A DNA stretch of 64,000 nucleotides. Source: Candidatus Hemicellulosilyticus sp. P3. Lineage in GTDB: Bacteria; Bacteroidota; Bacteroidia; Bacteroidales; P3. Of this stretch, positions 1,049-59,000 are shown piece by piece. A model generated the notes under the pieces. The model had not been told where the DNA came from. It searched no databases and saw only the letters and a list, made by a program, of their open reading frames with translations. The stretch's first letter is position 1; each line of letters begins with the position of its first letter. Where the stretch lies: contig LPNH01000001.1 of assembly GCA_001543385.1 (NCBI GenBank), forward strand, positions 62,001-126,000. Direction: 5' to 3'. The translations under genes and the position numbers were made by a program.

Positions 1049-1923
1049 ATATACTGACTTTTGACATAGAAGAATGGTATCTCGAAAAGGCTTATTTCGG
1101 GGCAAAAGAATCAAAGTATGCGGATTACGACCGTTTGCTTGATGAAATTCTGGTGAGGCTCTCGGATAAGGGCATAAAGGGGACTTTTTTCTGCGTGGGG
1201 AAGATGGCTTCTGAATTCCCGCATGTTGTCCGCAAGATTGCTGATGTCGGGCATGAGGTCGGTTGCCATTCAAATATCCACCAATGGCTGAACAAGATGT
1301 CCTATGCAGATGCTCTTGAGGATACCCGTGCGGCAGTGGACTCTCTGCAACAATGCATCGGGAAGAAAGTGGTTAGTTTCCGTGCCCCTGCATTCTCTAT
1401 CGGGAGCGGCAACAAATGGGCTTTCGAGGCGCTGGCAAACAATGGTATCACCTGCGATGCATCTGTTTTTCCGGCTTCCCGTGACTTCGGAGGGTTTCCT
1501 GGGTTTTCCAAGATGGAACCGACGATTGTCAGATATAATGGAATTGAGCTGCACGAGTTCCCGATAGTGACAACGAAAATCCTTGGCAAGGATTTCGCTT
1601 ACTCTGGCGGAGGTTATTTCCGCTTCTTTCCTTATGGGTTTATTGAAAGGGAAATGCAAAAGACAAAATATTCAATGACTTATTTCCATCTTGGAGATTT
1701 GCTTCCGGTTATTTCCGGGGTTATGCCAAAAGACGAATATGAACGCTATTTCAATGAACCAGGCACTGTAAAGGCACGCTACCTCCGCTACGTCAAGACA
1801 AATCTGGGAGTAAGAAGCAATAAAAAAAAGTTGTTCAGATTGATAGATGGTTTGGATTTCAATAATATTTCCGAGGCGGATCAACAGATAGACTGGTCTT
1901 TGGCCCCCGTACTTTCTTTATAA
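1045..1923 (+). CDS. Polysaccharide deacetylase (NodB-fold)
   Basis: 292 residues. The start reads MNILTFDIEEWYL, giving the acidic metal-binding strand of carbohydrate esterase family 4 enzymes. The strand KGTFFCVG follows, then the metal-ligand HSNIH segment (about residues 75-79) and SFRAPAFSIG (about 112-121), the arginine motif of the family. The length and the lack of a signal peptide fit the cytoplasmic DUF3473-like subgroup common in exopolysaccharide loci. It should remove an acetyl group from a lipid-linked or nucleotide-linked amino sugar. It overlaps the upstream gene by four bases. Confidence 0.85.
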   Translation: MNILTFDIEEWYLEKAYFGAKESKYADYDRLLDEILVRLSDKGIKGTFFCVGKMASEFPHVVRKIADVGHEVGCHSNIHQWLNKMSYADALEDTRAAVDSLQQCIGKKVVSFRAPAFSIGSGNKWAFEALANNGITCDASVFPASRDFGGFPGFSKMEPTIVRYNGIELHEFPIVTTKILGKDFAYSGGGYFRFFPYGFIEREMQKTKYSMTYFHLGDLLPVISGVMPKDEYERYFNEPGTVKARYLRYVKTNLGVRSNKKKLFRLIDGLDFNNISEADQQIDWSLAPVLSL

Positions 1924-1933
1924 TCAGTTTCCC

Positions 1934-2542
1934 ATGTATAAGCATTTTTTCAAGCGGCTGTTTGATTTCCTGATTTCGTTGGTGGCTTTGTTGCTTATTG
2001 GTTGGTTTCTCGCCGTCGTGTCCATTTTTTTGCATTTTGCAAATAAAGGCGCGGGTGCATTCTTCTTCCAGGAGCGTCCGGGTAAGGACGGAAAGATTTT
2101 CAAGGTCATCAAATTTAAGACTATGACCGATGAAAGGGATGAGAACGGAAATCTTTTGCCGGATGAAAAACGGTTGACTAAGGTTGGAAAGTTTGTGCGA
2201 AGCACCAGCATTGATGAGTTACCTCAACTTATCAATGTGCTGAAAGGTGATATGTCGTTGATCGGGCCGCGGCCGCTGTTGGTCCAGTACCTGCCGCTCT
2301 ATTCCGCCGAGCAGGCCAGACGTCACGAGGTCCGTCCTGGCATCACCGGCTGGGCGCAGTGCCACGGGCGCAATGCCATCAGTTGGACGGAGAAGTTTAA
2401 ACTGGATGTTTGGTATGTCGACCATTGCACGTTGTGGACAGATATAAGGGTGATTTGGATTACTGTCATGAAGGTGCTGCAACGCGACGGAATCTCGCAG
2501 GAAGGGCAGGCGACGACAACGGCGTTTAACGGAAATAATTAG
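1934..2542 (+). CDS. Initiating sugar-phosphate transferase (undecaprenyl-phosphate acceptor)
   Basis: 202 residues, the size of the minimal PglC-type monotopic phosphoglycosyl transferase. An N-terminal hydrophobic segment (about residues 10-34) precedes the catalytic core: QERPGKDGKIFKVIKFKTM, then STSIDELPQLINVLKGDMS and LIGPRPLL, the full signature of the bacterial sugar transferase family (PF02397). It should move a sugar-1-phosphate from a UDP-sugar onto undecaprenyl phosphate at the inner membrane and so start the repeat unit. It begins ten bases after the deacetylase stop. Confidence 0.92.
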   Translation: MYKHFFKRLFDFLISLVALLLIGWFLAVVSIFLHFANKGAGAFFFQERPGKDGKIFKVIKFKTMTDERDENGNLLPDEKRLTKVGKFVRSTSIDELPQLINVLKGDMSLIGPRPLLVQYLPLYSAEQARRHEVRPGITGWAQCHGRNAISWTEKFKLDVWYVDHCTLWTDIRVIWITVMKVLQRDGISQEGQATTTAFNGNN

Positions 2543-2555
2543 TTTTTTGTTTAAT

Positions 2556-2693
2556 ATGAATCGCATCATCTTTTTGACGGAGGATGTAGATGTGAAGCCA
2601 TTGGTTAGACAAATGTTGAGCAGTATGTGTAATACATATTTACATATACAAAAAGATAATAATTACAAAAAGATAATAATAGAGATAATATAA
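2556..2693 (+). pseudogene. Short ORF, probable remnant of a lost polysaccharide gene
   Basis: A 45-codon frame opens 13 bases after the sugar transferase with MNRIIFLTEDVD and keeps a protein-like look for about 25 codons. It then runs into an AT-rich stretch (LHIQKDNNYKKIIIEII) and stops. The composition change inside the frame suggests the 5' end of a longer gene whose remainder was deleted, but it could be a real small ORF or no gene. I cannot name the parent gene. Confidence 0.3.
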
Positions 2694-2700
2694 AAAAAAG

Positions 2701-2742
2701 CTGCATCGTGGAGGTGTTTCACATGAAAAAACTCGAATGCAG
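2701..2742 (+). promoter_or_regulatory. Hairpin with a strong ribosome-binding site in its loop
   Basis: CTGCATCG (2701-2708) can pair with CGAATGCAG (2734-2742), leaving one bulged A. The loop carries GGAGG at 2710-2714, eight bases before the ATG at 2723. Such a clear Shine-Dalgarno is unusual here, since most genes in the window lack one. The hairpin sits at the 5' side of the acyltransferase gene that starts at 2767. Confidence 0.4.
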
Positions 2743-2770
2743 TTGTGTAAATAAGAATTATATATTATGA
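2723..2770 (+). CDS. Candidate 15-residue leader ORF coupled to the NeuD-like gene
   Basis: ATG at 2723 opens a frame reading MKKLECSCVNKNYIL and ending in TGA at 2768-2770. The stop overlaps the ATG of the next gene (2767) as ATGA. The frame has the best ribosome-binding site in the region (GGAGG at 2710-2714, eight bases upstream). It may be a translated leader that delivers ribosomes to the acyltransferase, or the leftover start of a deleted gene. It is too short for any homology judgement. Confidence 0.35.
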   Translation: MKKLECSCVNKNYIL

Positions 2771-3405
2771 AAGATATTGCGATTTTTGGTGTCGGAGGCT
2801 TTGGTCGTGAGGTCTTAACTTTGATACAGGACATTAATCGTCAAGAGCCAATCTGGAATATTATTGGTTTCTTTGATGACGGACACCCTCAAGGAGAGGT
2901 TGTCAATGGCTATATGACATTGGGCGGAATGTCTGTACTAAATCAATGGCCCACGCAGTTGGATATAGTTGTTGCTATTGGAGACCCTTTGACAAAGAAA
3001 TCTATACTTGGTCGAATATGCAATCCTAATATTTCTTATCCATCATTGATTCATCCTACTGTATTGATTGGAGATAGAAATTACGTTGAGATTGGTCAAG
3101 GATGCATTATTTGTGCGGAGAATATAATAACCACTAATGTCAAGATTGGCGATTTCGTATTGTTTAATCTGGCATGCACAACAGGTCATGATACTGCAAT
3201 TCAGAACTTCTCCTCATTTATGCCTTCTGTCAATATATCAGGTGAAGTTAGTGTTGGAGAGGGGGTTTATATGGGTACAGGGGTGAAAATCATCAATCAA
3301 GTTTCGATTGGTGATTATGCTACTATTGGTGCCGGTGCAGTGGTCACTAAAAGTTTACCGGGCCATTGTACCGCGGTTGGTGTTCCGGCAAAGGTCATAA
3401 AATGA
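2767..3405 (+). CDS. NeuD/PglD-like sugar O/N-acyltransferase (left-handed beta-helix)
   Basis: 212 residues. The N-terminal half is a small Rossmann-like domain (IFGVGGFGREVLTLI, residues 5-19) as in NeuD and PglD, which bind the nucleotide-sugar amine. From about residue 95 come hexapeptide repeats of the acetyl-CoA binding beta-helix, ending IGAGAVVTKSLPGHCTAVGV and PAKVIK. It should acetylate an aminated UDP-sugar, consistent with the DegT-type aminotransferase at the end of the locus. Complete at both ends. The substrate is inferred from context. Confidence 0.85.
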   Translation: MKDIAIFGVGGFGREVLTLIQDINRQEPIWNIIGFFDDGHPQGEVVNGYMTLGGMSVLNQWPTQLDIVVAIGDPLTKKSILGRICNPNISYPSLIHPTVLIGDRNYVEIGQGCIICAENIITTNVKIGDFVLFNLACTTGHDTAIQNFSSFMPSVNISGEVSVGEGVYMGTGVKIINQVSIGDYATIGAGAVVTKSLPGHCTAVGVPAKVIK

Positions 3406-3546
3406 GAAGCGTCGCTAACATTCATTCATTGGCTACGTACCGGCAAATGGTGCGTGGCGGGGGCAGGAGCAGCATTTGTTGGCAACTGGGGCGATAATAT
3501 GAAGATAGCCGGGGTGCCGGCAGCCCCTGTCGGCAGGCGGCAGTGA
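3406..3546 (+). pseudogene. Decayed C-terminal end of a second hexapeptide acyltransferase
   Basis: Directly after the stop at 3403-3405, the same frame stays open and its last 30 codons read VAGAGAAFVGNWGDNMKIAG then VPAAPVGRRQ before TGA at 3544. That pattern (GAGA, then DN, then AGVPA, then P) is the closing turn of left-handed beta-helix acyltransferases and differs from the upstream gene's own ending, so it looks like the tail of a separate deleted gene. No start codon or catalytic part remains. Confidence 0.5.
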
Positions 3547-3549
3547 TGG

Positions 3550-6351
3550 GTGATGGAAGTGGATCTGTCAGGAATCGGAGGAATGAGGCAAAATCAAGAC
3601 TACCATAATATGCAAGCGGATCAGGATGCTGAGACGCTGATGGTTTTTGAGGAGACGGGTCTCTTTTTGAGTTTCGTCTCGTATCCGTTTTACAAGGACG
3701 GGATGGAGATATACACAAAAGTGTTTAGCCCTTTTTTCGAGGAGCATAAGATACAAATAGACCGCTTTGATCCAGCAAGCGACGATGGGTCTTTGCTCTA
3801 TCGTCCGGCGGGTTACCGTATGTTCGGCTCCCAAGGGCTGGCCATATTGTCGTTGGTCGACGATTTTTCGTTCCATAACCGTTTCTTTAACAAAAACCAT
3901 ATTCAGACGCTGCTTCAGAACAGCGATGTTGATTCGGATGGTATCGACCTGGACTTCAAAAGTGTCGTCATCTCAGGTGTGTCGGAACGGTGTTTGACGG
4001 ACCGGACGCTGGAACAGTCCGCCGTCGCCACGTTTCTACGCAAGGACGGCCGATACCCTTTTATCGGCATTATCCGGCTGAAGATTGACTATCAACTGTT
4101 GTCGGGATCGGGGCGTGGCATTCATACTACAAGATGTATCAAGAGGCATATATCCGGTCTGGCCGGGCGCTATGGGAAAGGGGAGCTTGATTATATTGCG
4201 GTCGACTGTTTCGACAATGATGAAATGACGGTGGTTGCCTTTGCGCACCAGCTTCTTTCACTTTACAATTTCCTTGGCGAAATCCGGAGTATAACCACCA
4301 CGGATTTAAACCGGCAGAATGCCGGTGCGGTGCGGGGTCACACGAATCCCCGGGAGGAGTGGCATGTGTTCCGGATGGCGTACCTCTGCTATGGATACGA
4401 TGTCGAACAGGGCTTACCCTGGGATATACTGGAACAGTATACCATCAGATGTCATGTTGAGACCAAAACAGGACACCGCGATGTTTTCCGCCGTTATCTT
4501 GCAGATTTGGATAAGGCGGACAGCGAGGAGCAGCGGCTGGGGTTGAGAAATATAGAGTGCAATATATCAGGTGGCTGCAACCTCAGTTTTACGATGCCGT
4601 TGAAGAACCTGCCGCGTCTTGAGTCGCTTTGCCGTGACCGAAGCCCTGAGTCGGTTTTTTGTCGCGACGTGCGAAAGGTGAAGGTGACGCTGAGCGACGT
4701 GGCGGATGAACGCCGGACCACCAGCGATATTGACGAAGACAGCCATCTCCACACCAGGGAAACGCGCCATGAGGGAATAGAGCGGGAGGTTTTTTCCTCG
4801 GCCAAGAGACTGCTGAAACAGGCGGGAGTTTCCAAAATGGTGCGAGAGCGGCTGCTGGCTTTGTTTGAGTTGTATAATCTGTCGTGCCAAAACTTGCTGC
4901 AACGTTTCTACCTGGAGGAGCTGAAGTCGGCCATCAACAGTTTTGTTGATAAAATAAAGGATATGTCCGAATCGCCCGAAGAGAATCTGAGGTCGATTGA
5001 GGCGATGTTGAACGAGGAGATCACCAATCTGGAGAATGCTTGCTACGACCGCCTCCACAATCAAAAAAGCGACCAGACCCCTTTGGAGTACAGCGGAGGT
5101 ATACAGCAGTACCTGACTTCGTTCGATTTTGCATACAAGCAAATTTACCAGGCTTTCTCGCCCAATGACTACAGCGCTTCGTTTCTGGCCGTCACCGGCG
5201 CGGAGCGGGCCTCATCCGAGCGTTCGCTCTTCAAACTGAACATTCATGACATTGTCTTCCCGGAACTTTTTGCCACCACCGTGTGGAAGGAGATTGCCAA
5301 TTTTGCATTGAAGACACAGCAGTGTTACACCGACGTTGACGCCGACGGGGAGGTTTTGTTTGTGATGAATACATGGAACGGCTTCACCAACAGCCCCAGG
5401 TCGTTACAGATTCTCAAGGACGCTATCAGCCAGTCCGCGTCGCTTTTGCACAGCGATGATGTCAGTGAGTGTATCAAAAGTCTGATATCGAACGAGCTGG
5501 TGGCGTATTTTATAAAGGATTTCATCGTATATCACTTCGCTTTCTGCGAGAAATACAACCTGCTGTGGCATTTCTATTTCAAGACCATGCTGCAGACAAC
5601 CGTCAGCTACAGTGACCTAAACCGGGTGGACAAGAAATATTTTATTCATACGCTGATGCGGTTGTTTATGGTCGGGATGCTTGCCGACGGGCGTGCCGCG
5701 GAGTCCCCGGCTACATTCATCCAACAGCAGTCGCGGGCACCTTTCGACAGTATTTTGGCATCCGCATGGATAGAATGCTATGATAAAGTCCGGATAGCTT
5801 GCGGAGAGATATATGAAGTGCTGAACCGGTACGGTTTCCGGGAAATGGTCGAATACAATGTCAGAAGCTGCGAAGCCAATATCTATTCGATGGAGCATCC
5901 CGGCGAGGAGATTGTCCCGTACAACAAGACAACGGTTCGGCAGGAGCGATGGCAGACGGTTGAAAAAATGCTGGGTTACTTCGAACAGGGAGTTCTTTTG
6001 GAAAACAGGACCGGCAGCAAAAGCGTTTGCACATTTGTGATTTGCCTTCTTAACGCCTACCTCGAGGCGGTGTATCATATCGATGGTTCCGGATCGAAGG
6101 ATCGCCCTGTCCGGTGCGTGCCGCGTAATGCCTCGGGCGAGGTTCACGATATCATGGCCTGCAAGAGCGATGCGGGGCTGCGGGAACGGATGACGCAGAT
6201 ATTGGTGGACACCACGGGCGGTTTCTTCGTACCGTCAGCCGAGGTGCGAAAGCAGTATTTCCAATTGCGGACCACGCTGTACCGTAGTTTGTGGCATCAT
6301 CGTTTCGTAAACCAGGCTGTTGAGTCAAACTCCCATAGCGTTGCACAATGA
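3550..6351 (+). CDS. Large protein of unknown function, partner of the phosphoesterase
   Basis: 933 residues counted from GTG at 3550; ATG at 3553 is an equally good start. I do not recognise a family. There is no signal peptide or membrane segment, so it is expected in the cytoplasm. Residues about 30-120 look like a mixed alpha/beta domain (FEETGLFLSFVSYPFY, then FGSQGLAILSLVDDFS). Residues about 415-515 are strongly helical and could form a coiled coil, and the C-terminal 400 residues are mostly helical. No Walker, nuclease or protease motif is obvious. Its TGA overlaps the ATG of the metallophosphoesterase (ATGA at 6348-6351), so the two are made together. It sits inside a polysaccharide locus next to decayed gene ends, which points to an inserted accessory cassette. 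Confidence 0.85.
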   Translation: MMEVDLSGIGGMRQNQDYHNMQADQDAETLMVFEETGLFLSFVSYPFYKDGMEIYTKVFSPFFEEHKIQIDRFDPASDDGSLLYRPAGYRMFGSQGLAILSLVDDFSFHNRFFNKNHIQTLLQNSDVDSDGIDLDFKSVVISGVSERCLTDRTLEQSAVATFLRKDGRYPFIGIIRLKIDYQLLSGSGRGIHTTRCIKRHISGLAGRYGKGELDYIAVDCFDNDEMTVVAFAHQLLSLYNFLGEIRSITTTDLNRQNAGAVRGHTNPREEWHVFRMAYLCYGYDVEQGLPWDILEQYTIRCHVETKTGHRDVFRRYLADLDKADSEEQRLGLRNIECNISGGCNLSFTMPLKNLPRLESLCRDRSPESVFCRDVRKVKVTLSDVADERRTTSDIDEDSHLHTRETRHEGIEREVFSSAKRLLKQAGVSKMVRERLLALFELYNLSCQNLLQRFYLEELKSAINSFVDKIKDMSESPEENLRSIEAMLNEEITNLENACYDRLHNQKSDQTPLEYSGGIQQYLTSFDFAYKQIYQAFSPNDYSASFLAVTGAERASSERSLFKLNIHDIVFPELFATTVWKEIANFALKTQQCYTDVDADGEVLFVMNTWNGFTNSPRSLQILKDAISQSASLLHSDDVSECIKSLISNELVAYFIKDFIVYHFAFCEKYNLLWHFYFKTMLQTTVSYSDLNRVDKKYFIHTLMRLFMVGMLADGRAAESPATFIQQQSRAPFDSILASAWIECYDKVRIACGEIYEVLNRYGFREMVEYNVRSCEANIYSMEHPGEEIVPYNKTTVRQERWQTVEKMLGYFEQGVLLENRTGSKSVCTFVICLLNAYLEAVYHIDGSGSKDRPVRCVPRNASGEVHDIMACKSDAGLRERMTQILVDTTGGFFVPSAEVRKQYFQLRTTLYRSLWHHRFVNQAVESNSHSVAQ

Positions 6352-7802
6352 AACGGCCCGTGTCCATATTGTTCCTGTCGGACATCCACTACAACAGTTC
6401 AGGCGACATGCATGCTGTTGACACCTTGTACCGTGATTTTGCCAAATACCTTGACCAGGATGTCTCAAGAAGAAGATGGCAGCCGGACTACGTGGCGGTT
6501 GTGGGCGACATATCCGACCATAACTGCGGCTATGACGGTGCTGCATCTTTGCTGAAGCGATTGATCGGACGGGATGTATTCAATATTCCTTCCGACCATG
6601 TGATTTTGGTTCCAGGCAACCACGACAAGACGGTGCCGGAGGACGATGCCGAACTGTCATCCGACAAAGCATTGTTCGAAAAGTTTTCAGGTCATCCGGA
6701 GAGGCATGCAGGCGAGTTCGCGAAGGTCTTCTCGCAGCGGTTCAAATCGTATATGGACTTCTGTGACCGTTTCCAGGGCAGCTATCGGAGTCCCCGCGAC
6801 GGGAAGGAGCGACTGCTCTCGGACGAGCGGATGCAGTGTCTTTCCGGTGTCAAGGCTTTTGAGGAAGATCACCTTTGTTTCCTGACGGTGAACAGCGAGT
6901 GGCTTTACGTCCCTCGGAAGCGGTTTGTGAAAAAGATGGAGGCACAGACGGGAGCGCAGGACAGCCATGTCGTCATCAACGAGCGGTGCACGCTGTGCGC
7001 CCCGTTGGTCAAGGAAGCCCGCGAGGTTGTCAGAAGATATTACGGCGGTTGGACGGTGGTCTCGTTGATGCATCGCGGCTTTGACCGGCTGTACGCTAAT
7101 AGCGGTCTCCAGGGCGAGTCATTGCATATTGATGCTGCGGACTCGTTGGTCAAGGTGTCGGATTTGATTGTCACAGGTCACGACCATACCCTTTCTCTCG
7201 AACCTCCCACTTTCATACAAAACCGTACCCAGCACATCCGTTTGGGTGCGGTCGGCCGTACCGAGCCCAAGGGCGAGGAGTTGTTCCGTTCAGCCGAGAT
7301 TGTCCATATCGATGCTGCACGGGCGACATTCGAGCAATTGTTTCTTTCGTATGAAAGCAGTGATGAGCATTGGCATTTCACCGAAAAAGGGGTCACCTAT
7401 CCGTTGCCATCCTATTACAGATCGGAGCAGCGGTATCCCGGTGAAAGGGAGCCGGTGAGGGGTCATAGAACGGTCCTACAGGCTGCCGGCTGTTCCGAGA
7501 CAGCTGTGCGGCGTACTGTAGAAACCTACTTCGGTGATATTGCCCCGTATCAATTGGTTTTGGTCAAAGCGGGTGACAATCTCTGCGAACGGTTGCGGCA
7601 GGTTGTTGAGAACAATGTAGGAAGCCTTTTTGTTGTTGTCTATTCGCTATATCCGGAGCATCATGCTGTGAGCGGCAATTTTTCGGCCGATACGAAACAG
7701 GCCATGGCCTGTTTTCGGGATGAAATGATGAAGGAACTGATGTCGGGACGCATGGTGCTGACCGAGGTGACCGTGGATTACCCCATAGACTATTCTGCAT
7801 GA
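6348..7802 (+). CDS. Calcineurin-like metallophosphoesterase
   Basis: 484 residues. All five metal-binding motifs are present in order: SDIH (residues 11-14), GD (53-54, in VVGDIS), GNHD (90-93), a histidine in SLMHRGF (about 242) and GHDH (about 277-280). The catalytic domain therefore looks intact and should hydrolyse a phosphodiester or phosphomonoester with two metal ions. Between GNHD and the later motifs lies an insert of about 100 residues, and about 150 residues after GHDH form an extra domain I do not recognise. No signal peptide. It is translationally coupled to the 933-residue protein. Substrates of this superfamily range from nucleic acids to cyclic nucleotides, so none can be named. 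Confidence 0.88.
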   Translation: MKRPVSILFLSDIHYNSSGDMHAVDTLYRDFAKYLDQDVSRRRWQPDYVAVVGDISDHNCGYDGAASLLKRLIGRDVFNIPSDHVILVPGNHDKTVPEDDAELSSDKALFEKFSGHPERHAGEFAKVFSQRFKSYMDFCDRFQGSYRSPRDGKERLLSDERMQCLSGVKAFEEDHLCFLTVNSEWLYVPRKRFVKKMEAQTGAQDSHVVINERCTLCAPLVKEAREVVRRYYGGWTVVSLMHRGFDRLYANSGLQGESLHIDAADSLVKVSDLIVTGHDHTLSLEPPTFIQNRTQHIRLGAVGRTEPKGEELFRSAEIVHIDAARATFEQLFLSYESSDEHWHFTEKGVTYPLPSYYRSEQRYPGEREPVRGHRTVLQAAGCSETAVRRTVETYFGDIAPYQLVLVKAGDNLCERLRQVVENNVGSLFVVVYSLYPEHHAVSGNFSADTKQAMACFRDEMMKELMSGRMVLTEVTVDYPIDYSA

Positions 7803-7820
7803 TATTTTGCAAAAAAGTTG

Positions 7821-7828
7821 TATATTTG
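7821..7828 (+). promoter_or_regulatory. TAnnTTTG promoter box
   Basis: TATATTTG matches the Bacteroidota -7 box TAnnTTTG and lies just after the phosphoesterase stop. No TTTG -33 element sits at the usual 19-21 base spacing. It would drive the small ORF at 7968 or the capE group. Confidence 0.45.
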
Positions 7829-7843
7829 CACAAGAGTTTAAAA

Positions 7844-7874
7844 TTTATAAAATATCAACGAGTTTGATATATAA
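7844..7874. repeat. AT-rich inverted repeat, possible operator
   Basis: The left arm TTATAAAATATCAA and right arm TTTGATATATAA are separated by CGAG and pair over most of their length. The site lies downstream of the TAnnTTTG box at 7821-7828, where a repressor would block transcription. The 15-mer TTTATAAAATATCAA (7844-7858) recurs exactly at 55909-55923 in front of the giant secreted protein. Confidence 0.4.
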
Positions 7875-7967
7875 TTCGTTATGTGGTGCTCCGCCGTTGC
7901 CGTACGGGCTGTTGGCGGGGTGGGTGTCTGTTCCCGATACATCGCATAGCAGGAATAATATTGAAGG

Positions 7968-8180
7968 ATGATACATCTGAAAACGTCGGAAGCAGCCGAC
8001 CGTTACATTAAATCACAGGGCAAACGGTGGCATTCTCAACCCGTTTCGTATAGTAATGAAACCATCGGCAAAGAGCTATCTCCGACTGAATTTAAAAAAT
8101 TCCTGGATGTTGTAAACAAACCGAGGCCGTATAGCTCTTTCGATTTCAAAAAACAGCATTTCATTCCGGATTTGGATTGA
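7968..8180 (+). CDS. Small hypothetical protein (70 aa)
   Basis: ATG at 7968 follows GAAGG closely. The product is hydrophilic and basic at first, with a segment SPTEFKKFLDVVNKPRPYSS, and has no signal peptide or membrane helix. Codon use looks coding, and it has its own upstream region with a promoter box and an inverted repeat. I do not recognise it. It may belong with the unknown pair upstream (a small regulator or antitoxin-like partner would be possible) or be unrelated. Confidence 0.55.
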   Translation: MIHLKTSEAADRYIKSQGKRWHSQPVSYSNETIGKELSPTEFKKFLDVVNKPRPYSSFDFKKQHFIPDLD

Positions 8181-8311
8181 CCCGGGCTGTGACGCAACCC
8201 GTCCCTGGATTCAATCATACATTTGTTTTTTTATTGGCCACCGTGCTGTCGGTATAGCAAGGTGGTGTTGTTTTGTTTTTTATTTTCATTTTCTTTATTT
8301 TCTGTTATTAT

Positions 8312-9361
8312 ATGTCCATTTTTAAAGACCGTACCCTCTTGATCACTGGAGGGACAGGAAGTTTTGGCAACGCGGTGCTGAACCGTTTCCTTCGCAGCGA
8401 CATCGGCGAAATCCGCATCTTTTCGCGCGACGAGAAGAAGCAGGACGACATGCGGCACGACTTTCAGACCAAGATGCCCGAGGTGGCTCACAAAATCAAG
8501 TTCTACATTGGCGACGTGCGTTCGCTGGAGAGTTGCCGTTCGGCGATGCCGGGCGTGGACTATATCTTCCATGCGGCGGCGCTGAAGCAGGTGCCGAGCT
8601 GCGAGTTCTTTCCCATGGAGGCGGTGCGTACCAATGTCATCGGCACCGACAACGTGCTGACGGCGGCTATCGAGGCGGGGGTGAAGAGTGTCATCTGCCT
8701 CTCGACCGACAAGGCGGCCTATCCCATCAACGCGATGGGCATCACCAAAGCCATCGAAGAGAAGATAGCGGTGGCCAAGAGCCGCTACAGCGGCACCACC
8801 AAAATCTGCTGCACGCGCTATGGCAACGTGATGTGTTCGCGCGGCAGCGTTATTCCGTTGTGGATAGATCAGATTCGCAAGGGTAACCCTATTACCCTTA
8901 CAGAACCTAAGATGACCCGTTTCATCATGAGCCTCGAAGAGGCGGTGGACTTGGTGCTCTTCGCCTTCGAGCATGGTCAGAATGGCGACATCCTGGTCCA
9001 GAAAGCGCCTGCCTGCACCATCCAGACCCAGGCCGAAGCGGTGTGCGAGCTCTTCGGCGGAGACAAAAGCCAGATTAAAGTTATCGGCATCCGGCACGGG
9101 GAGAAGATGTATGAGACCCTCTTGACCAAGGAAGAATGCGCCAAAGCCGAGGACATGGGCGACTTCTACCGGGTGCCCGCTGACAACCGCGACCTGAACT
9201 ACGACAAATTTTTTCGCGAAGGCAACGCCAAGCGGGCTGAAATCGAGGAGTTCAACTCTGACAATACACTGCGCCTCAACCTTGAGGGGACCAAAGCCAA
9301 AATCGCCTCGCTGGAATACATCCAGAACGAGTTGAACGGCATTCCTAATATTGTGAAATAA
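8312..9361 (+). CDS. capE: UDP-N-acetylglucosamine 4,6-dehydratase/5-epimerase (CapE/WbjB type)
   Basis: 349 residues from ATG at 8312. An upstream non-ATG extension would only add a Phe/Ile-rich stretch, so I rejected it. It is a short-chain dehydrogenase: TGGTGSFGNAVL near the N-terminus binds NADP, HAAALKQVPSCE is the family hallmark, and LSTDKAAYPINAMGITKAIE carries the dehydratase active-site region (the usual Tyr-x-x-x-Lys is replaced by Met-x-x-x-Lys, as in FlaA1/CapE enzymes). It should convert UDP-GlcNAc to the 4-keto-6-deoxy L-talo/L-arabino intermediate, the first step to UDP-L-FucNAc. capG and capF follow directly. Confidence 0.9.
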   Translation: MSIFKDRTLLITGGTGSFGNAVLNRFLRSDIGEIRIFSRDEKKQDDMRHDFQTKMPEVAHKIKFYIGDVRSLESCRSAMPGVDYIFHAAALKQVPSCEFFPMEAVRTNVIGTDNVLTAAIEAGVKSVICLSTDKAAYPINAMGITKAIEEKIAVAKSRYSGTTKICCTRYGNVMCSRGSVIPLWIDQIRKGNPITLTEPKMTRFIMSLEEAVDLVLFAFEHGQNGDILVQKAPACTIQTQAEAVCELFGGDKSQIKVIGIRHGEKMYETLLTKEECAKAEDMGDFYRVPADNRDLNYDKFFREGNAKRAEIEEFNSDNTLRLNLEGTKAKIASLEYIQNELNGIPNIVK

Positions 9362-9442
9362 TAAGAGATTATACTTAAGCATGGAGGTCTTCGTATATCG
9401 GAAATCAGTGGCTTGTCAGAAGAAACATTAAGTTTTATATAA

Positions 9443-10606
9443 ATGAAAAATTTCAAGAATAACGGGAGATTAAAGCTGTTAATCATCGTCGGTACGCGAC
9501 CCGAGATTATCCGCCTGGCGGCGGTCATCAACAAATGCCGCCAATACTTCGACTGTCTGTTGGCGCACACGGGCCAGAACTATGACTACAACCTCAACGG
9601 TGTCTTCTTCAAAGACCTGAAGTTGGAAGACCCGGACATATACATGGAGGCCGTGGGCGACGACTTGGGGGCCACGATGGGTAACATTATCGACAAAAGT
9701 TACAAGGTGATGGTGGCGACACGTCCGGATGCCGTGCTGGTGCTGGGCGACACCAACAGTTGCCTGTCCGTGATCGGTGCCAAGCGGCTCCACATCCCCA
9801 TCTTCCACATGGAGGCGGGCAACCGCTGCAAAGACGAGTGTCTTCCCGAAGAGACCAACCGCCGCATTGTCGACATCATCTCCGATGTCAACATGGCTTA
9901 CAGCGAGCACGCCCGCCGCTACCTGGCCGACTGCGGCCTGCCGAAAGAGCGCACCTATGTGACGGGTTCGCCGATGGCGGAGGTGCTGCATCAGAACCTC
10001 GATGCGATTAAGTCCTCAAACATCTTAAAAACCTTAAACCTTAAACCGCAGAATTATATCCTGCTTTCCGCACACCGCGAAGAGAATATCGACACCGAGC
10101 GCAATTTCAACAGTCTCTTCACCGCCATCAACCGCATGGCGGAGCAATACGACATGCCAGTTCTCTACAGTTGCCATCCGCGCAGCCGCAAGCGACTCGA
10201 GACAAGCGGTTTCCAACTCGACCGTCGCGTCATCCGCCATGATCCGCTGGGTTTCCACGACTACAACTGCCTTCAGATGAATGCCTACGCGGTGGTGAGC
10301 GACAGCGGCACTTTGCCGGAGGAGTCGAGCTTCTTCACCAGCGTGGGCCATCCCTTCCCGGCGGTGTGCATCCGCACCTCAACGGAGCGTCCTGAGGCGA
10401 TCGACAAAGGTGATTTTATCATCGCCGGCATCGATGAAAAGAGCCTGCTGCAGGCTGTCGACACCGCTGTGGAGCTTTGCAGGAACGGCCATCACGGCTT
10501 GCCCGTGCCCGACTATGTCGACGAGAATGTCAGCACCAAGGTGGTGAAAATCATCCAGAGCTACACGGGCATCGTCAACAAGATGGTTTGGAGGAAAGAG
10601 CAATAA
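9443..10606 (+). CDS. capG: UDP-N-acetyl-sugar 2-epimerase (CapG/WbjD type)
   Basis: 387 residues, the usual length for non-hydrolysing UDP-GlcNAc 2-epimerases. The N-terminus has VGTRPEIIRLAAVI, later LGDTNSCLS, the HMEAGNRC loop and LPEETNRRIVD, and the C-terminal nucleotide-binding lobe has SAHREENID and VVSDSGTLPEESSF. Between capE and capF this is expected to catalyse the last step, UDP-N-acetyl-L-pneumosamine to UDP-N-acetyl-L-fucosamine. The 81-base gap from capE is AT-rich and contains no convincing gene. Confidence 0.9.
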   Translation: MKNFKNNGRLKLLIIVGTRPEIIRLAAVINKCRQYFDCLLAHTGQNYDYNLNGVFFKDLKLEDPDIYMEAVGDDLGATMGNIIDKSYKVMVATRPDAVLVLGDTNSCLSVIGAKRLHIPIFHMEAGNRCKDECLPEETNRRIVDIISDVNMAYSEHARRYLADCGLPKERTYVTGSPMAEVLHQNLDAIKSSNILKTLNLKPQNYILLSAHREENIDTERNFNSLFTAINRMAEQYDMPVLYSCHPRSRKRLETSGFQLDRRVIRHDPLGFHDYNCLQMNAYAVVSDSGTLPEESSFFTSVGHPFPAVCIRTSTERPEAIDKGDFIIAGIDEKSLLQAVDTAVELCRNGHHGLPVPDYVDENVSTKVVKIIQSYTGIVNKMVWRKEQ

Positions 10607-13305: not shown

Positions 13306-13419
13306 TTTGAACGGTGAACCTCGTCTACAGGACTTGCAGCGGTGGCGGTGTTTCAGAACTTCCATCTTTGATATGCCGAGTGGATGTCGTTTTTGTACTG
13401 CTATGTCGTGGAAAATGTG

Positions 13420-13427
13420 TATTTTTG
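13420..13427 (+). promoter_or_regulatory. TAnnTTTG box just upstream of the nucleotidyltransferase start
   Basis: TATTTTTG matches the Bacteroidota -7 box. Only seven bases separate it from ATG 13435, so transcription is expected to begin at or next to the start codon, which would make the message leaderless or nearly so. Confidence 0.5.
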
Positions 13428-13434
13428 CGATAGA

Positions 13435-14526
13435 ATGGACGGTATGACCATACATCCGGACGAGCAGACGCTGATTGCCTTGCTGCGAATGGCGTGGGGT
13501 GGGGCGGAGCAACCCTTGCCCGGTGGTGAGGTGGATTGGCAGTCGGTATATGAACTCTCTTTGCGGCAGGGCGTGACGGCTGTCGCCTGCGAGGGCTTGT
13601 TGCGGCTTCCGTCGGTCGACGAGGGGGTGCGCTACAACTGGATGGCGCAGACGCTGTTGTGCGAGATGGATTGCGAACGGAAGATACAGGCCACACGGAA
13701 ACTATCGCAGATGTGGGCAGAGCAAGGGATTCATGGCGTGGTGCTCAAGGGGCTGGCCTTTGCACAGCACTATGCCAATCCGACACACCGGCCTTTCGGC
13801 GATCTCGACGTGTTTCTGTTCGACGGCTGGGAAGCGGGCAACCGTGTCGCGGAGGATGCCGGCGTGACGGTGCGCCGCGGCTACTATAAACATTCCACGT
13901 TGAGTTTCCAAGGGCTGACGGTCGAAAACCACCGGTTCTGTACGCCGATACGGGGCGGCAGACGGCGCAAACAATACGAGCGCTATCTGCAGCAATTGTT
14001 GCGCCAGGAACCGTTGACGCCTGTTGAAGGGGTCCCGTTGCTGTCGCCGCCACCCCTGTTCAACTTGATTTTCTTTTTGTCGCATGCCCGTAACCATTTT
14101 CTCAACGAGGGCGGTGTGACTTTGCGCTTTGTATGCGACTGGGCGGCATTGCTGCAGGCCTATGGTCCCGACGGGGATTGCCGCCAGCCGCAGGAGTTGT
14201 GGCATGAATTGCTGCGGCGTTGCCGCGATTACGATCTATCTTCATTTGCCATGTCCATGAGCCGTTTGGCGCAGCAGGTGTGCGGTGTGGCGGCGCCGTT
14301 CGGCTGCGGTGCCGACGATGCCGCCGACCGGTTGCTGCTGGCTGACATGCTGGCCTCCAACGTGGCGCCCGTCGAGTTCTCCCAAGGTTGGCGCACCCGA
14401 TGGCAGCTGATACGCTCTGTGCTGGGGTCACGGCGCAAATTCCATTATTTTTCGCGCCGCTCCATGCCGGTCTCGCTGTTAGAATCGGCATGGGCGTACT
14501 GCACCGACCGCCATCCGTCGTTGTAG
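13435..14526 (+). CDS. Nucleotidyltransferase-fold protein (NTP_transf_5 type)
   Basis: 363 residues from ATG 13435; ATG 13444 is also possible. An upstream in-frame ATG at 13384 would lie ahead of the promoter box and is rejected. The pattern VVLKGLAFAQHYANPTHRPF followed by GDLDVFL is typical of the uncharacterised nucleotidyltransferase family PF14907: a conserved Lys-Gly, then an Arg-x-x-x-Asp-x-Asp catalytic-type motif. In Bacteroidota these proteins often sit beside polysaccharide loci, as here. The transferred nucleotide and the acceptor are unknown. Confidence 0.7.
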   Translation: MDGMTIHPDEQTLIALLRMAWGGAEQPLPGGEVDWQSVYELSLRQGVTAVACEGLLRLPSVDEGVRYNWMAQTLLCEMDCERKIQATRKLSQMWAEQGIHGVVLKGLAFAQHYANPTHRPFGDLDVFLFDGWEAGNRVAEDAGVTVRRGYYKHSTLSFQGLTVENHRFCTPIRGGRRRKQYERYLQQLLRQEPLTPVEGVPLLSPPPLFNLIFFLSHARNHFLNEGGVTLRFVCDWAALLQAYGPDGDCRQPQELWHELLRRCRDYDLSSFAMSMSRLAQQVCGVAAPFGCGADDAADRLLLADMLASNVAPVEFSQGWRTRWQLIRSVLGSRRKFHYFSRRSMPVSLLESAWAYCTDRHPSL

Positions 14527-14649: not shown

Positions 14650-15768
14650 ATGAAGAAGGTAGATGAAGGGAATCGTTGTGTTGTTTTTCAGCCTACGTTT
14701 GGTAACCGTCCGGACCAGTATATCGGGCGTGACGGGGTGATAGAGCAATTCATGGCCGGGTTGAGGGAGCCTGTGGGGAGCCGCAATCGTTGCTCGCTGT
14801 TCCTCGGACAGCGGGGTATGGGGAAAACGGCTCTACTGCTTGAGTTGAGTGATCGTGCGGAGAAGGCTGGCTATGTGGTGGCTCGTGTGACGGCTCACGA
14901 AGGGATGCCGCAGGCTATCATTGAACAGTTTCAGATGAACGGATCGGTCTTCTTCAAGGATGACAGGCGCAAGCTGACGGGCGTGACTGCCGGTGCGCTT
15001 GGATTCACCTTTGGTCTTACATTCTCCGAGGCTGCGGAGCGGCAGTACGGGTTCCGCTCGAAAATGTCGCTGCTTTGCGACAGACTCGCCGAGAAGAACA
15101 AAGGTGCACTGATTCTGATTGACGAGGTGCGCACATCGGCGGCCATGCGAGAGGTGGCATCGGCCTACCAGGAGTTGGTGGGAGACAGGAAGAATGTGGC
15201 CATTGCGATGGCTGGCCTGCCCCATGCCGTCTCCGGTGTTTTGAATGACAAGGTGCTCACATTCCTGAATCGTGCTACCAGGGTGGAGCTGGGATTGATT
15301 TCCACTAATCTGATCAAGGCGTACTATGAACGGGCATACAGGGGGATGGGTATCCATATTTCAGATGAGTTTCTGGACAGGGCTGCGCTGGCTACTCGCG
15401 GTTTCCCGTATCTGATGCAGCTGATAGGATATTATGTGATTCAATATACGCCGGAAGGTGGAACTGTCGACTGTGCAATCATGGATAGGGCTGAGAAATC
15501 TGCCATGGGGGACATGGAGAACAATGTGTTCAAACCGATTCTGAGTCCGCTGTCGGAAAACGACAAGATATTCCTGAAGGCGATGGCCCGACAGGGAGAA
15601 ACCGTGAGCACGGCCAAGCTGCAGGCGGCTTTGGGTAAGATGGGCCCGGCGATGCAACCTTATCGGAAACGGTTGCTGGAGGCGGGGGTCATTGAGGCGC
15701 CTCGCAGGGGAGAATTGGTGTTTGCGATGCCTTATCTGGCAGATTATTTGCTGGACAATAAGTATTAG
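14650..15768 (+). CDS. P-loop ATPase of the archaeal-type/STAND group
   Basis: 372 residues. After a short lead-in containing PDQYIGRDGVIEQF (a typical entry to Orc/Cdc6-like ATPases) comes Walker A GQRGMGKTALL (about residues 53-63) and Walker B ALILIDEV. A helical lid domain follows, then a C-terminal region (about 300-372) ending in a probable winged helix (KLQAALGKMGPAMQPYRKRL). Proteins of this shape are standalone ATPases often thought to be regulatory or linked to mobile DNA and conflict systems. Nothing in the neighbourhood fixes the role. It has its own promoter box and is convergent with the receptor gene. Confidence 0.75.
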   Translation: MKKVDEGNRCVVFQPTFGNRPDQYIGRDGVIEQFMAGLREPVGSRNRCSLFLGQRGMGKTALLLELSDRAEKAGYVVARVTAHEGMPQAIIEQFQMNGSVFFKDDRRKLTGVTAGALGFTFGLTFSEAAERQYGFRSKMSLLCDRLAEKNKGALILIDEVRTSAAMREVASAYQELVGDRKNVAIAMAGLPHAVSGVLNDKVLTFLNRATRVELGLISTNLIKAYYERAYRGMGIHISDEFLDRAALATRGFPYLMQLIGYYVIQYTPEGGTVDCAIMDRAEKSAMGDMENNVFKPILSPLSENDKIFLKAMARQGETVSTAKLQAALGKMGPAMQPYRKRLLEAGVIEAPRRGELVFAMPYLADYLLDNKY

Positions 15769-56045: not shown

Positions 56046-59000
56046 ATGAAAAAGCAGTCACTATTTTTGCTCTGTTTATTTGTCTGTATGGCTATGTCGG
56101 CTGTGTCCCAAATCACTACGGTGTACCGACAGGGATTTGAGGCAAGTGAAGCGACCACTTATACCGTTGTCCAAGGCAGTGCGTCGCCACAGACTGCGGT
56201 GGCGGTGGCGGGATCGCGTGCACTCAAGTTGGAACACAATACGACCGGCACCATGATCCTGTTTGACACCATCAATCTGAATAACGGCGCATGGCAGCAT
56301 TTCGCATTGGAGTTTTTCCATATCAACAATGTCGATCCCACCACTTGCGACCGGTCCTCTTTGGTGGGTGTGATAGAGGTGAAGCGTCCGGGTGTCGACA
56401 ACGATTGGACCAAGGTCACGAATAATTTCTATAATGTCGTGGAGGGTGCCTACAGCACCGATTTTTTTGACCGCGGTTCTTTCTGTTCGGCATCCTATGA
56501 AGGTTGGGATAACATGACGGTCTCTGACAATATGTGGAAACGCGAGCGTTTCGATTTTGACGTTTTCTTGTCCAATCAGTCCGCGGTGGGACGAAAGCTG
56601 TTGATTCGTATGACGCTGATGGCACGAAACTCCGCCACCGCCACCACCGCAGGCTGGTATATTGACGATGTGGTGCTGAAGGCCAGTCCCGATCCCATGA
56701 TCACTCCCATGTTGTCCATGGTGGACATGCCGGATGCCTATGCCTATCCGAGCAGCCGTGGCGCCCGTATTGCCGCTGATATCACCACCACGGTGTCGCA
56801 GGGCATGGATCCTGATTCTATATACGTGGCCTATAAGGTCGGCTCCGATCCCACGGAGTATCGGCTGCCGATGGCGGCGATGTCCGGCGTGGCCAACCGC
56901 TACGAAGCGCGCATCCCTTTCTACGGTTACGACACGGTGATGCAGTGGCGCCTTGTTGCACGCGACTTCACCTCCAACCGAAATACGGTCACCTATCCCT
57001 CCAGCAGTGCATCATGGTGCAGTTATGCCTGTGTGCGCGGCACGGCCAACAGCCGGAACTTGGTGTCAGACGTCAATGCGTTGGGAGGGTCGGTGGCTTA
57101 CCCATTCCCGCTTTACGGCGATAACCGCAGCGAGTTTATTGTCGACAGCATACGCCTTCACGATGCCGGTTACCGCGCAGGTGCCATCACCTCAATGACT
57201 TTCACCACACAACAGAACGTAACCGCCCAGCAGCTTCGGGAGCGGCTACAGGTGCGTATGGCCAATGTGCCCACCACCTATGCTGCATCAGAGAACGGCT
57301 ATTTTTACAACGGGTTCATGAAGGCGGTCTACGACGATGCTTTCATCATAGAGCCATCCACGACCGGTTCGCTTGTGACGGTTTTTTTCCAGGACACATT
57401 TTTCTATGCGGGTCAGGACATATTGGTCCGCATCACTTACGACAACAGCACCACTGATCCGGGTGCCACGTCCGTCCGTGTGATGCCGGTGACCGACGAA
57501 TACAAAAAGACAGTCTATGTCTTTGGCAATTACGCCAATTTGGGGTCCGACTTCTTCAACGAGGCTTCGTTCAACCCCGATAATATGTTCATCACTACGG
57601 GCACCACCGTGCCGCATGTATTGCTCGGGGCTCACGGGAACATGCCGATGATGTATGACTGCGGCGTGTCGGCACTTGCCTACCCCAATGAGGATATTGC
57701 ATCGCGTTCCAATGTTGACGATTCGGTGGTGGTGTGGCTCAAAAATTATGGGTCCAGCACTATAAATTCAGTTCCTGTCTACTATTCGTTGGATAACGGC
57801 GCACCGGTCTCCTACTTGTGGACAGGCACGTTGGCTGCCGGCGACAGCACGCGGGTCCGAGTCAGCACAACCCAGCGCTATACGGTTGGTTTTCACAGTA
57901 TCAAGGCTTGGGTGGGAGATACATTGACGGTTTCAGGTGTCTCCTGGCGCGACCATGAACCGTACAATGACACCGTTGACGTTGAATTTATCGCCTGTGC
58001 AGGTGCAATGAACGGTGTGCGTCGGGTGGGCGGTGACAATGCCGATTATGCCACGATGGAGCAATTCTTGTTTTCGTTGTCGCATTGCGGTGTCGACGGC
58101 CCGCTTACGGTGAAACTGACCCCAGGCCGCTACGATGCCGTGGTGTTGCCTGTGGTGCCCGGTTTATCGTCCTCGAGTCCTGTCACATTTGAACCGTTGT
58201 CCGACAGCGTGTGGTTCGAAGCCGATGTTTCCACAACGGCCCTTGTCGATTTGCAACGGGTGGCATATATCCGTTTCCGCAACATCGGCTTTGCACGTCC
58301 TGCGTCGGCCACGGCGACCCGGTGTCTGGTTCAGATGGCTTCCTCCAGTCCCGACTGCCGATTTGTGAATTGCTGGCTGGCCGACAGCGGCGCCACCCCG
58401 GTTGCGGCACTGATTGCCACAACGGGTGCCGACTCGTTGCTGGTGGATTCATGCTCGCTGCAGGGCGGAGCCATAGGTCTCGACCTGACAGGCCTTGCCA
58501 GCGACAACCATTCCCGTGGCAGCCGTGTCGCGCATTCCGATTTCAGGGCGCAGAATGTGACGGCAGTCAAGGCGGTATATCAGGACGATTTGACGGTGGA
58601 CAGCAACTGGATGAACAATGTCAAGACCAACGCCAGTTATGTGCTGTTGTTTCAGAGCTGTGGCGGTCAGATGCAGGTTACGGCCAACAAAATATACACC
58701 TCCAACGGTGCCAGCGCCATGGGTCTGGCTGATATCGCGGGTACAGCACAGCATCCGGCTGTTTTTGCAAATAACATGATTGTGAGCAACGACGATGGCC
58801 GGTCTGTGCAGTTGGCCACACCGCTGAACATTATCTCGGCGCGACATACGCTGATTGCTTACAATTCCGTCAAGTTAGTGGCCGGCAACCGGCGCAATGT
58901 GGCGACCGTCACGTTGGGAAGCGGGTCGGGTGTGCTGACCGACGTGCGTCTGGTCAACAATGTCATCGCCTGTATGGACGCTTCGAATCTGGCACTGAAC

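What the first reader, a model, noticed from the sequence alone, without database searches (positions are those of the whole stretch)
3550..7802. Unknown 933-residue protein coupled to an intact metallophosphoesterase, inserted in a polysaccharide locus
Seen: two genes overlap as ATGA. The second has all five calcineurin-like motifs plus an unassigned C-terminal domain; the first has no motif I know and no membrane segment. The pair is unrelated to sugar chemistry, lies between acyltransferase and UDP-L-FucNAc genes, and is bordered upstream by a decayed gene end. Known: calcineurin-like phosphoesterases serve as effectors in several bacterial conflict systems, and capsule loci are insertion hot spots. 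Inference: a two-gene accessory module, possibly anti-phage or a nucleotide-signal device, with the large protein as sensor or scaffold.
Basis: partly seen in the sequence, partly recalled or inferred. Interest (0 to 1): 0.72.

Follow-up and report, generated by a model that had tools for sequence, protein, structure and literature searches.

The report
Likely new three-gene phage-defence operon

Summary
P1 (3550-6351; likely start 3610 or 3640) and P2 (6348-7802) overlap as ATGA. P2 is an intact metallophosphoesterase (MPE). P1 matches no known family. I add a third gene, P3 (7968-8180, 70 aa), with a conserved ~33-residue module ending in RPY...D[SF]xKQHFIPDL. A P1 homologue lies beside an MPE in 7 of 7 other loci, and P1 and P2 co-diverge (r 0.94-0.96). 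P3 is found in 4 of 8 loci. A same-genus relative shows the empty site. In 3 of 14 relatives read, the region upstream of the same dehydratase gene holds Gabija, PARIS-like or HEC-01 genes. Two further P1-P2 loci have a Mokosh-like gene or a NACHT/FRG/DUF2971 cluster downstream. The nearest tested defence proteins are DS-8 and DS-9A (DefensePredictor), far below their family cut-offs. P1 models as a HemQ-like ferredoxin barrel, a third such unit and a large helical domain with invariant polar residues. Best reading: an accessory anti-phage operon in which P2 is the catalytic effector, P1 the sensor/scaffold and P3 a small docking regulator. Phage defence is inferred from context; nothing was tested at the bench. 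The roles of P1 and P3 are inference.

The parts
2767..3405 (+). left flank: PglD/NeuD-type sugar O-acyltransferase gene (capsule locus); the insert begins at its 3' end
   Evidence: NCBIfam TIGR03570 190.7 bits, above cut-off 160.8; in G021 the matches to its end and to the right-flank gene are 13 nt apart
3406..3546 (+). remnant: tail of another hexapeptide-type acyltransferase (46 codons and a stop, no gene body), inside the insert
   Evidence: translation; family recognised by eye, not by a search
3610..6351 (+). P1, about 900 aa (ORF from GTG 3550; probable start 3610 or 3640). Predicted structure: residues 31-384 three ferredoxin-like units, the first two as a HemQ/chlorite-dismutase-like barrel; residues about 410-920 mostly helical with many invariant polar residues
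6348..7802 (+). P2, 484 aa calcineurin-like metallophosphoesterase with intact metal-site motifs and an unassigned C-terminal domain (about 376-478)
7821..7828 (+). TATATTTG, a Bacteroidales-type -7 promoter-like element in the P2-P3 gap; the motif TAnnTTTG occurs in the P2-P3 gap of all 4 loci that have P3
   Evidence: shuffles with the motif: 137, 308, 45, 251 of 1000 for the four gaps; a 25-58 base stretch around 7801-7859 has matches in 8 of 24 same-genus genomes, where only 12 candidates per genome were scored; the consensus is recalled
7968..8180 (+). P3, 70 aa small protein with conserved C-terminal module (FKKFLDVVNKPRPYSSFDFKKQHFIPDL)
   Evidence: same module downstream of P2 in L002, L003, L005; 26 proteins in the sequence database, one of them this protein; one strong match in each of those 4 genomes, at this locus
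8312..9361 (+). right flank: UDP-sugar dehydratase/epimerase (Polysacc_synt_2), capsule gene; the insert ends directly before it
   Evidence: PF02719 E 3.9e-105; empty-site alignment

Best explanation
An accessory anti-phage operon, carried as cargo in a capsule-locus insertion slot. P2 is the catalytic effector: a two-metal phosphodiesterase that cuts a nucleic acid or nucleotide during infection. P1 is its obligate partner, holding P2 inactive and sensing infection through its ferredoxin-like barrel and/or its helical domain. P3, made from its own promoter, is a small docking regulator: its conserved tail binds P1 or P2 and sets activity or place (some homologues carry a membrane-type tail). 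Shown here: the gene set, its linkage and co-divergence, the intact MPE motifs, the accessory nature, the defence neighbourhood at several places. Inferred: phage as the target, P2 as effector, P1 as sensor, P3 as docking regulator with its own promoter.
For: Linkage: MPE beside P1 in 7 of 7 other loci; 16 of 40 P2 hits share an exact longest-contig length with a P1 hit (indirect); P1 and P2 distance matrices correlate at r 0.958 (23 pairs) and 0.938 (20 pairs), 0 of 2000 permutations as high in either. Accessory: empty site in G021; P1 in 1 of 393 genomes of the order and 1 of 395 of the phylum, in each case only the window's own genome. Defence context: upstream of the same dehydratase in 3 of 14 relatives read lie Gabija (GajA 1.1e-112, GajB 4.5e-49), PARIS-like AriA 8.6e-26 with AriB 2.1e-26, and HEC-01A 1.9e-71 with HEC-01B 4.2e-13. 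L005's broken pair is followed by a MkoC match (1.9e-174) and L002's, after a deacetylase gene, by DUF2971/PDC-S31 (4.4e-42), FRG/PDC-S15 and NACHT genes. L006 has a phage-type integrase upstream. Precedent: the best NCBIfam matches of P2 are the DS9_1 and DS8 antiphage proteins (5.5e-9, 7.9e-8), whose MPE residues are needed for defence (passages of PMC13092281). P3.
Against: No phage assay exists. The DS-9 and DS-8 scores (35.4 and 30.5 bits) are far below their cut-offs (420, 790), and the L006 MPE matches neither. No background rate was computed for defence genes near capsule dehydratases, and in 11 of the 14 relatives read (one of them the empty site) I recognised no defence gene. Beside L003, L004, L007 and L050 I recognised none either, by eye. 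P3 was not found by profile in L004, L006, L007 or L050. P1 is better conserved than P2, which is unusual for a sensor next to an effector enzyme.
Confidence: 0.62

Rival explanations
1. Capsule-linked function: the enzyme removes a phosphate-containing substituent or intermediate of the polysaccharide, and P1 is its partner.
For: The window and L002 both lie in polysaccharide-synthesis loci, with GNAT and deacetylase genes (window; L002 by eye) nearby; L004 lies beside a SusC/SusD-like pair by eye.
Against: The other 6 loci are not polysaccharide-synthesis loci as far as I could read them by eye; a close relative has the same gene order without the insert.
Confidence: 0.08
2. Peptide (RiPP-like) system: P3 is a precursor peptide, P1 and P2 process it or give immunity to it.
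For: P3 is small with a conserved module and variable tails; L006 has a radical SAM/SPASM gene upstream of the MPE; the best structural match of P2 is YydB, which from memory lies near the YydF peptide operon of Bacillus subtilis.
Against: I recognised no maturase by eye beside the pair in the other loci; 12 of 26 P3 homologues end at or within 4 residues of the module, leaving no core peptide; the P3 proteins of the window, L002 and L003 match no NCBIfam family and that of L005 only ClpS weakly (E 0.018).
Confidence: 0.1
3. Toxin-antitoxin-like maintenance module: P2 (or P1) is a toxin and P3 its labile antitoxin; phage defence is incidental.
For: P3 is small and probably separately promoted; the set is patchy and inserted.
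Against: About 1400 residues of P1 and P2 are much larger than usual TA toxins (general knowledge); no plasmid or phage record matched P1, and viral contigs gave none for P1 or P2.
Confidence: 0.12
4. Nucleotide-signal turnover or DNA repair device of the host (Mre11/SbcD- or phosphodiesterase-like) with no role in conflict.
Against: No SbcC-type ATPase partner; very patchy occurrence.
Confidence: 0.08

Closest known systems
DS-9 (DefensePredictor; NCBIfam NF053862)
   Same: two-gene anti-phage system with a metallophosphoesterase; catalytic residues needed for defence (passages of PMC13092281); P2 matches its model at 5.5e-9
   Different: 35.4 bits against a cut-off of 420; the partner gene is a HAD phosphatase there, while P1 has no HAD or other known domain; no P3-like gene is mentioned in the passages read
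DS-8 (NCBIfam NF053861)
   Different: one protein with a NACHT domain; 30.5 bits against a cut-off of 790
YydB in the YYDD-YYDB model (9a6c; organism Bacillus subtilis recalled)
   Different: YydD was not compared with P1 here; the library gave no paper on its function (listings only)
HemQ / chlorite dismutase superfamily (dimeric alpha+beta barrel)
   Different: 9-16% identity in the HemQ-type top rows, no heme role tested, fused to a third unit and a ~500-residue helical part
SbcD/Mre11 nucleases
   Same: MPE fold and motifs
   Different: the partner shows no SMC/ABC ATPase family

Membership tests
calcineurin-like metallophosphoesterase (PF00149) | Pfam score above the gathering cut-off | tested here: met
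   44.1 bits against 21.5
calcineurin-like metallophosphoesterase (PF00149) | five metal-binding motifs DxH, GD, GNH(D), H, GHxH (motifs recalled) | tested here: met
   D12/H14 in 41 of 44 (3 rows without residues there), D54, N91/H92, H242, H278/H280 in 44 of 44
DS-9 anti-phage system | DS-9A equivalog score | tested here: not met
   35.4 bits, cut-off 420
DS-9 anti-phage system | HAD phosphatase partner | tested here: not met
   P1 has no HAD match
DS-8 anti-phage system | MPE and NACHT in one protein | tested here: not met
   484 aa, PF00149 only; 30.5 bits, cut-off 790
SbcCD/Mre11-Rad50 | SbcC/Rad50-type ABC ATPase partner | tested here: not met
   no ATPase family in P1; AAA_21 in 1 of 44 aligned members at E 0.013
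HemQ/chlorite dismutase | alpha+beta barrel of two ferredoxin-like units | tested here: met
HemQ/chlorite dismutase | match to the sequence family | tested here: not met
   no such Pfam or NCBIfam match of P1; not among the families listed for the 44 members (25 of 38 families shown)
HemQ/chlorite dismutase | heme or coproheme binding | not testable with these tools
   needs protein
CBASS | CD-NTase next to the effector | tested here: not met
   no CD-NTase among the neighbours scanned (Pfam; PADLOC of 13384-14526 and 14650-15768 only); 9443-10606 was not scanned. PADLOC 'Effector, Endonuclease' matched P2 residues 9-94 (5.2e-9)
anti-phage defence system in general | protects cells from phage | not testable with these tools
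   context only
toxin-antitoxin module | toxic protein neutralised by its neighbour | not testable with these tools
   needs expression tests

The most novel reading that the evidence does not exclude
A new immune architecture: a conserved P1-MPE core that is steered by an exchangeable small partner. The partner carries a ~33-residue docking tail (RPY...FIPDL) that is found alone, with a hydrophobic membrane-type tail, or with another fixed tail, so that one enzyme core is placed or triggered in different ways; P1 is a new sensor family with a ligand-binding ferredoxin barrel.
Probability: 0.25. Interest if true: 0.8.

Novelty: new variant of a known kind. Interest (0 to 1): 0.62.

Why it matters
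Metallophosphoesterases have only recently been shown to be needed in phage-defence systems, and what they cut there is unknown (PMC13092281, passages). This would be a further, separate architecture, with a large partner family without any known sequence domain and a small tagged partner, so trigger and substrate become directly testable. It also points to the 5' side of a UDP-sugar dehydratase gene in capsule loci of this genus as a place where defence genes settle.

Tried and rejected
Rejected: a core capsule role (6 of 8 loci read as lying elsewhere; empty site). Not supported: phage or plasmid cargo in the named collections (no match for P1 in 72,556 plasmid and 50,697 phage records; none in viral contigs for P1, P2 or P3). 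Considered from motif positions and dropped: P1 as a GGDEF/Cas10-like cyclase. The hairpin residues of unit 2 (N223-D224-E225) are not kept in the distant members, where D224 reads F, S or C, and the third unit's hairpin is SGGC, without acidic residues.

Led nowhere: P1 against Pfam, NCBIfam and PADLOC; P1 profile against PDB sequences (0 matches up to E 1); P1 against viral structures (none at E 0.001); paper searches on YydB/YydD, on metallophosphoesterase with phage defense and Bacteroides, and on chlorite dismutase with anti-phage. In these listings and I saw no paper whose title or abstract start describes this operon; only passages of PMC13092281 were read, nothing of the other papers beyond the listing. 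The helical part of P1 and the C-terminal domain of P2 were not folded alone, so their folds remain untested; a table of structure matches that lacks a family does not exclude it.

Dropped or limited: three genus genomes with only 64-65% identical dehydratases (G449, G512, G035) were not read. ORFs upstream of the dehydratase were picked by eye for PADLOC, so defence genes may have been missed. A1 holds 43 of the 101 P1 hits, A2 37 of the 40 P2 hits. One search scored only the 7997 candidates sharing most words. The genome-contig scan is pattern-based and not exhaustive. The P3 search could see only proteins of about 38-122 aa.
Full report
What is there. The window holds two overlapping genes at 3550-6351 and 6348-7802 (ATGA at 6348-6351). 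P2 is a calcineurin-like phosphoesterase (PF00149, E 4e-11) with its motif residues kept: D54, N91, H92, H242, H278 and H280 in 44 of 44 aligned proteins, D12 and H14 in 41 of 44, the other three having no residues there. P1 is about 900 residues and matches no Pfam, NCBIfam or PADLOC family above cut-off and no PDB sequence. It has 101 homologues at E 0.001 among the 7997 candidates scored from a database of 5.8 billion proteins, none with a precomputed Pfam domain. P2 has 40. The stated GTG start at 3550 is doubtful: the nearest homologue starts at 3610 and 17 of 43 aligned rows at 3640.

The pair is a unit. A pattern-based scan of 84,980 species genomes found six further loci, and a search of 173 genomes of one family found a seventh, distant one (G539 = L050, E 7e-19). 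In 7 of 7 an MPE gene lies beside P1: downstream in six, with gaps of 5-22 nt or a 4-base overlap, and upstream in L006 with a small ORF between. In L005 both genes are broken. In the protein database 16 of 40 P2 hits share the exact longest-contig length with a P1 hit, which is indirect evidence.

A third gene. ORFs of 50, 64 and 62 codons behind P2 in L002, L003 and L005 end in the same module. A profile of the four found 26 proteins of 49-112 aa, one of them the window's own and two nearly identical to those of L003 and L005. The common part is about 33 residues, consensus PTKESFxEICRILNEPRPYRSSDSxKQHFIPDL, with R53, Y55, D59 and F65 of the window protein invariant over 29 rows. The N-terminal part varies freely. 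After the module, 12 of 26 end within 4 residues, 8 of 26 continue with a hydrophobic stretch (best 19-residue mean 1.58-2.06) and 6 of 26 with a 21-23 residue tail of their own kind. In the genomes of the window, L002, L003 and L005 the module has one strong match each, at this locus. In L004, L006, L007 and L050 the profile finds nothing. Those have other genes in the place: a 159-aa protein with two hydrophobic segments in L004, a 147-aa protein in L007 with a weak PADLOC PDC-S53 match (8e-5), a 158-aa protein in L050, and in L006 a 72-aa ORF that resembles P3 only by eye. The P2-P3 gap holds TAnnTTTG, the Bacteroidales -7 element (recalled), in 4 of 4 loci; dinucleotide shuffles have it in 137, 308, 45 and 251 of 1000, about 5 in 10,000 jointly if independent. 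I chose the motif after looking at the gaps, so this is suggestive. P3 probably has its own promoter.

It is an insert. In G021, of the same genus, the matches to the end of pglD (window 2767-3405) and to the start of the dehydratase (8312) are 13 nt apart, in the same gene order. Everything from about 3402 to 8311 is absent there: the acyltransferase remnant, P1, P2 and P3. P1 was found in none of 60 other genomes (36 of the same genus), and in the order (393 genomes) and phylum (395) samples only in the window's own genome.

The slot takes defence genes. In G008 the interval between the same two genes holds a Gabija pair (GajA 1.1e-112, GajB 4.5e-49) and a 564-aa unknown protein, besides a glycosyltransferase and an NTP_transf_5 gene. 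Of 18 genus genomes with the dehydratase at E 1e-90 (119 searched) I read 15 including the window. Besides G008, G490 has PARIS-like AriA/AriB (8.6e-26, 2.1e-26) upstream of the dehydratase with one small ORF between, and G461 has HEC-01A/B (1.9e-71, 4.2e-13) one gene further up. So 3 of 14 relatives carry known or candidate defence genes there, one (G021) is empty, and in the other 10 I recognised none. I have no background rate. Elsewhere, L005's broken pair is followed by a Mokosh MkoC match (1.9e-174, itself split over two ORFs), L002's pair, after a deacetylase gene, by DUF2971, FRG and NACHT genes, and L006 has a phage-type integrase upstream. Beside L003, L004, L007 and L050 I recognised no defence gene by eye; L004 lies beside a SusC/SusD-like pair.

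How it may work. I take P2 as the effector, a phosphodiesterase of nucleotides or nucleic acids; P1 as the partner that restrains it and senses infection; P3 as a docking regulator. The first step rests on DS-8 and DS-9, in which MPE residues are needed for defence (passages of PMC13092281) and which are the best NCBIfam matches of P2, though far below the cut-offs. That P1 and P2 bind each other is inferred from linkage and co-divergence. The P3 role is the weakest step: inhibitor, trigger and membrane tether are all open.

Membership. P2 is an MPE. The system is not DS-9 (no HAD partner, score not met), not DS-8 (no NACHT), not SbcCD (no ATPase partner), and P1 is not a HemQ by sequence. It would be a new variant of MPE-based defence, if defence it is. 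No operon of this kind appeared in my paper listings, which cover a limited library.

Noticed in passing
L032 (G008:C37) 1660-9477; L041; L042: The 5' side of the UDP-sugar dehydratase gene in capsule loci of this genus holds Gabija, PARIS-like or HEC-01 genes in 3 of 14 relatives read; looks like a defence slot.
   Followed up: partly
L032 5145-6839: A 564-aa protein without any Pfam or PADLOC match sits directly upstream of the Gabija pair.
   Followed up: partly
window 13384-14526; L032 3424-4518; L047 868-2028: An uncharacterised nucleotidyltransferase (NTP_transf_5, PF14907, in the window and L032; L047 by eye only) recurs in these capsule loci.
   Followed up: partly
L006 4307-7738: Phage-type integrase and a radical SAM/SPASM gene upstream of the L006 MPE-P1 pair; the radical SAM protein also has a prokaryotic viperin match in PADLOC (1.2e-16).
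   Followed up: partly
L004 4389-4868: A 159-aa protein with two strongly hydrophobic segments starts 1 nt after the MPE gene, in the place of P3.
   Followed up: partly
L005 2629-7101 and 7683-10723: A decayed P1-P2 pair with a P3 ORF (7340-7528) that looks intact, beside a Mokosh MkoC-like gene split over two ORFs.
   Followed up: partly
window 56046-64000: Open frame of 2651 codons running off the window end; not examined.
   Followed up: no
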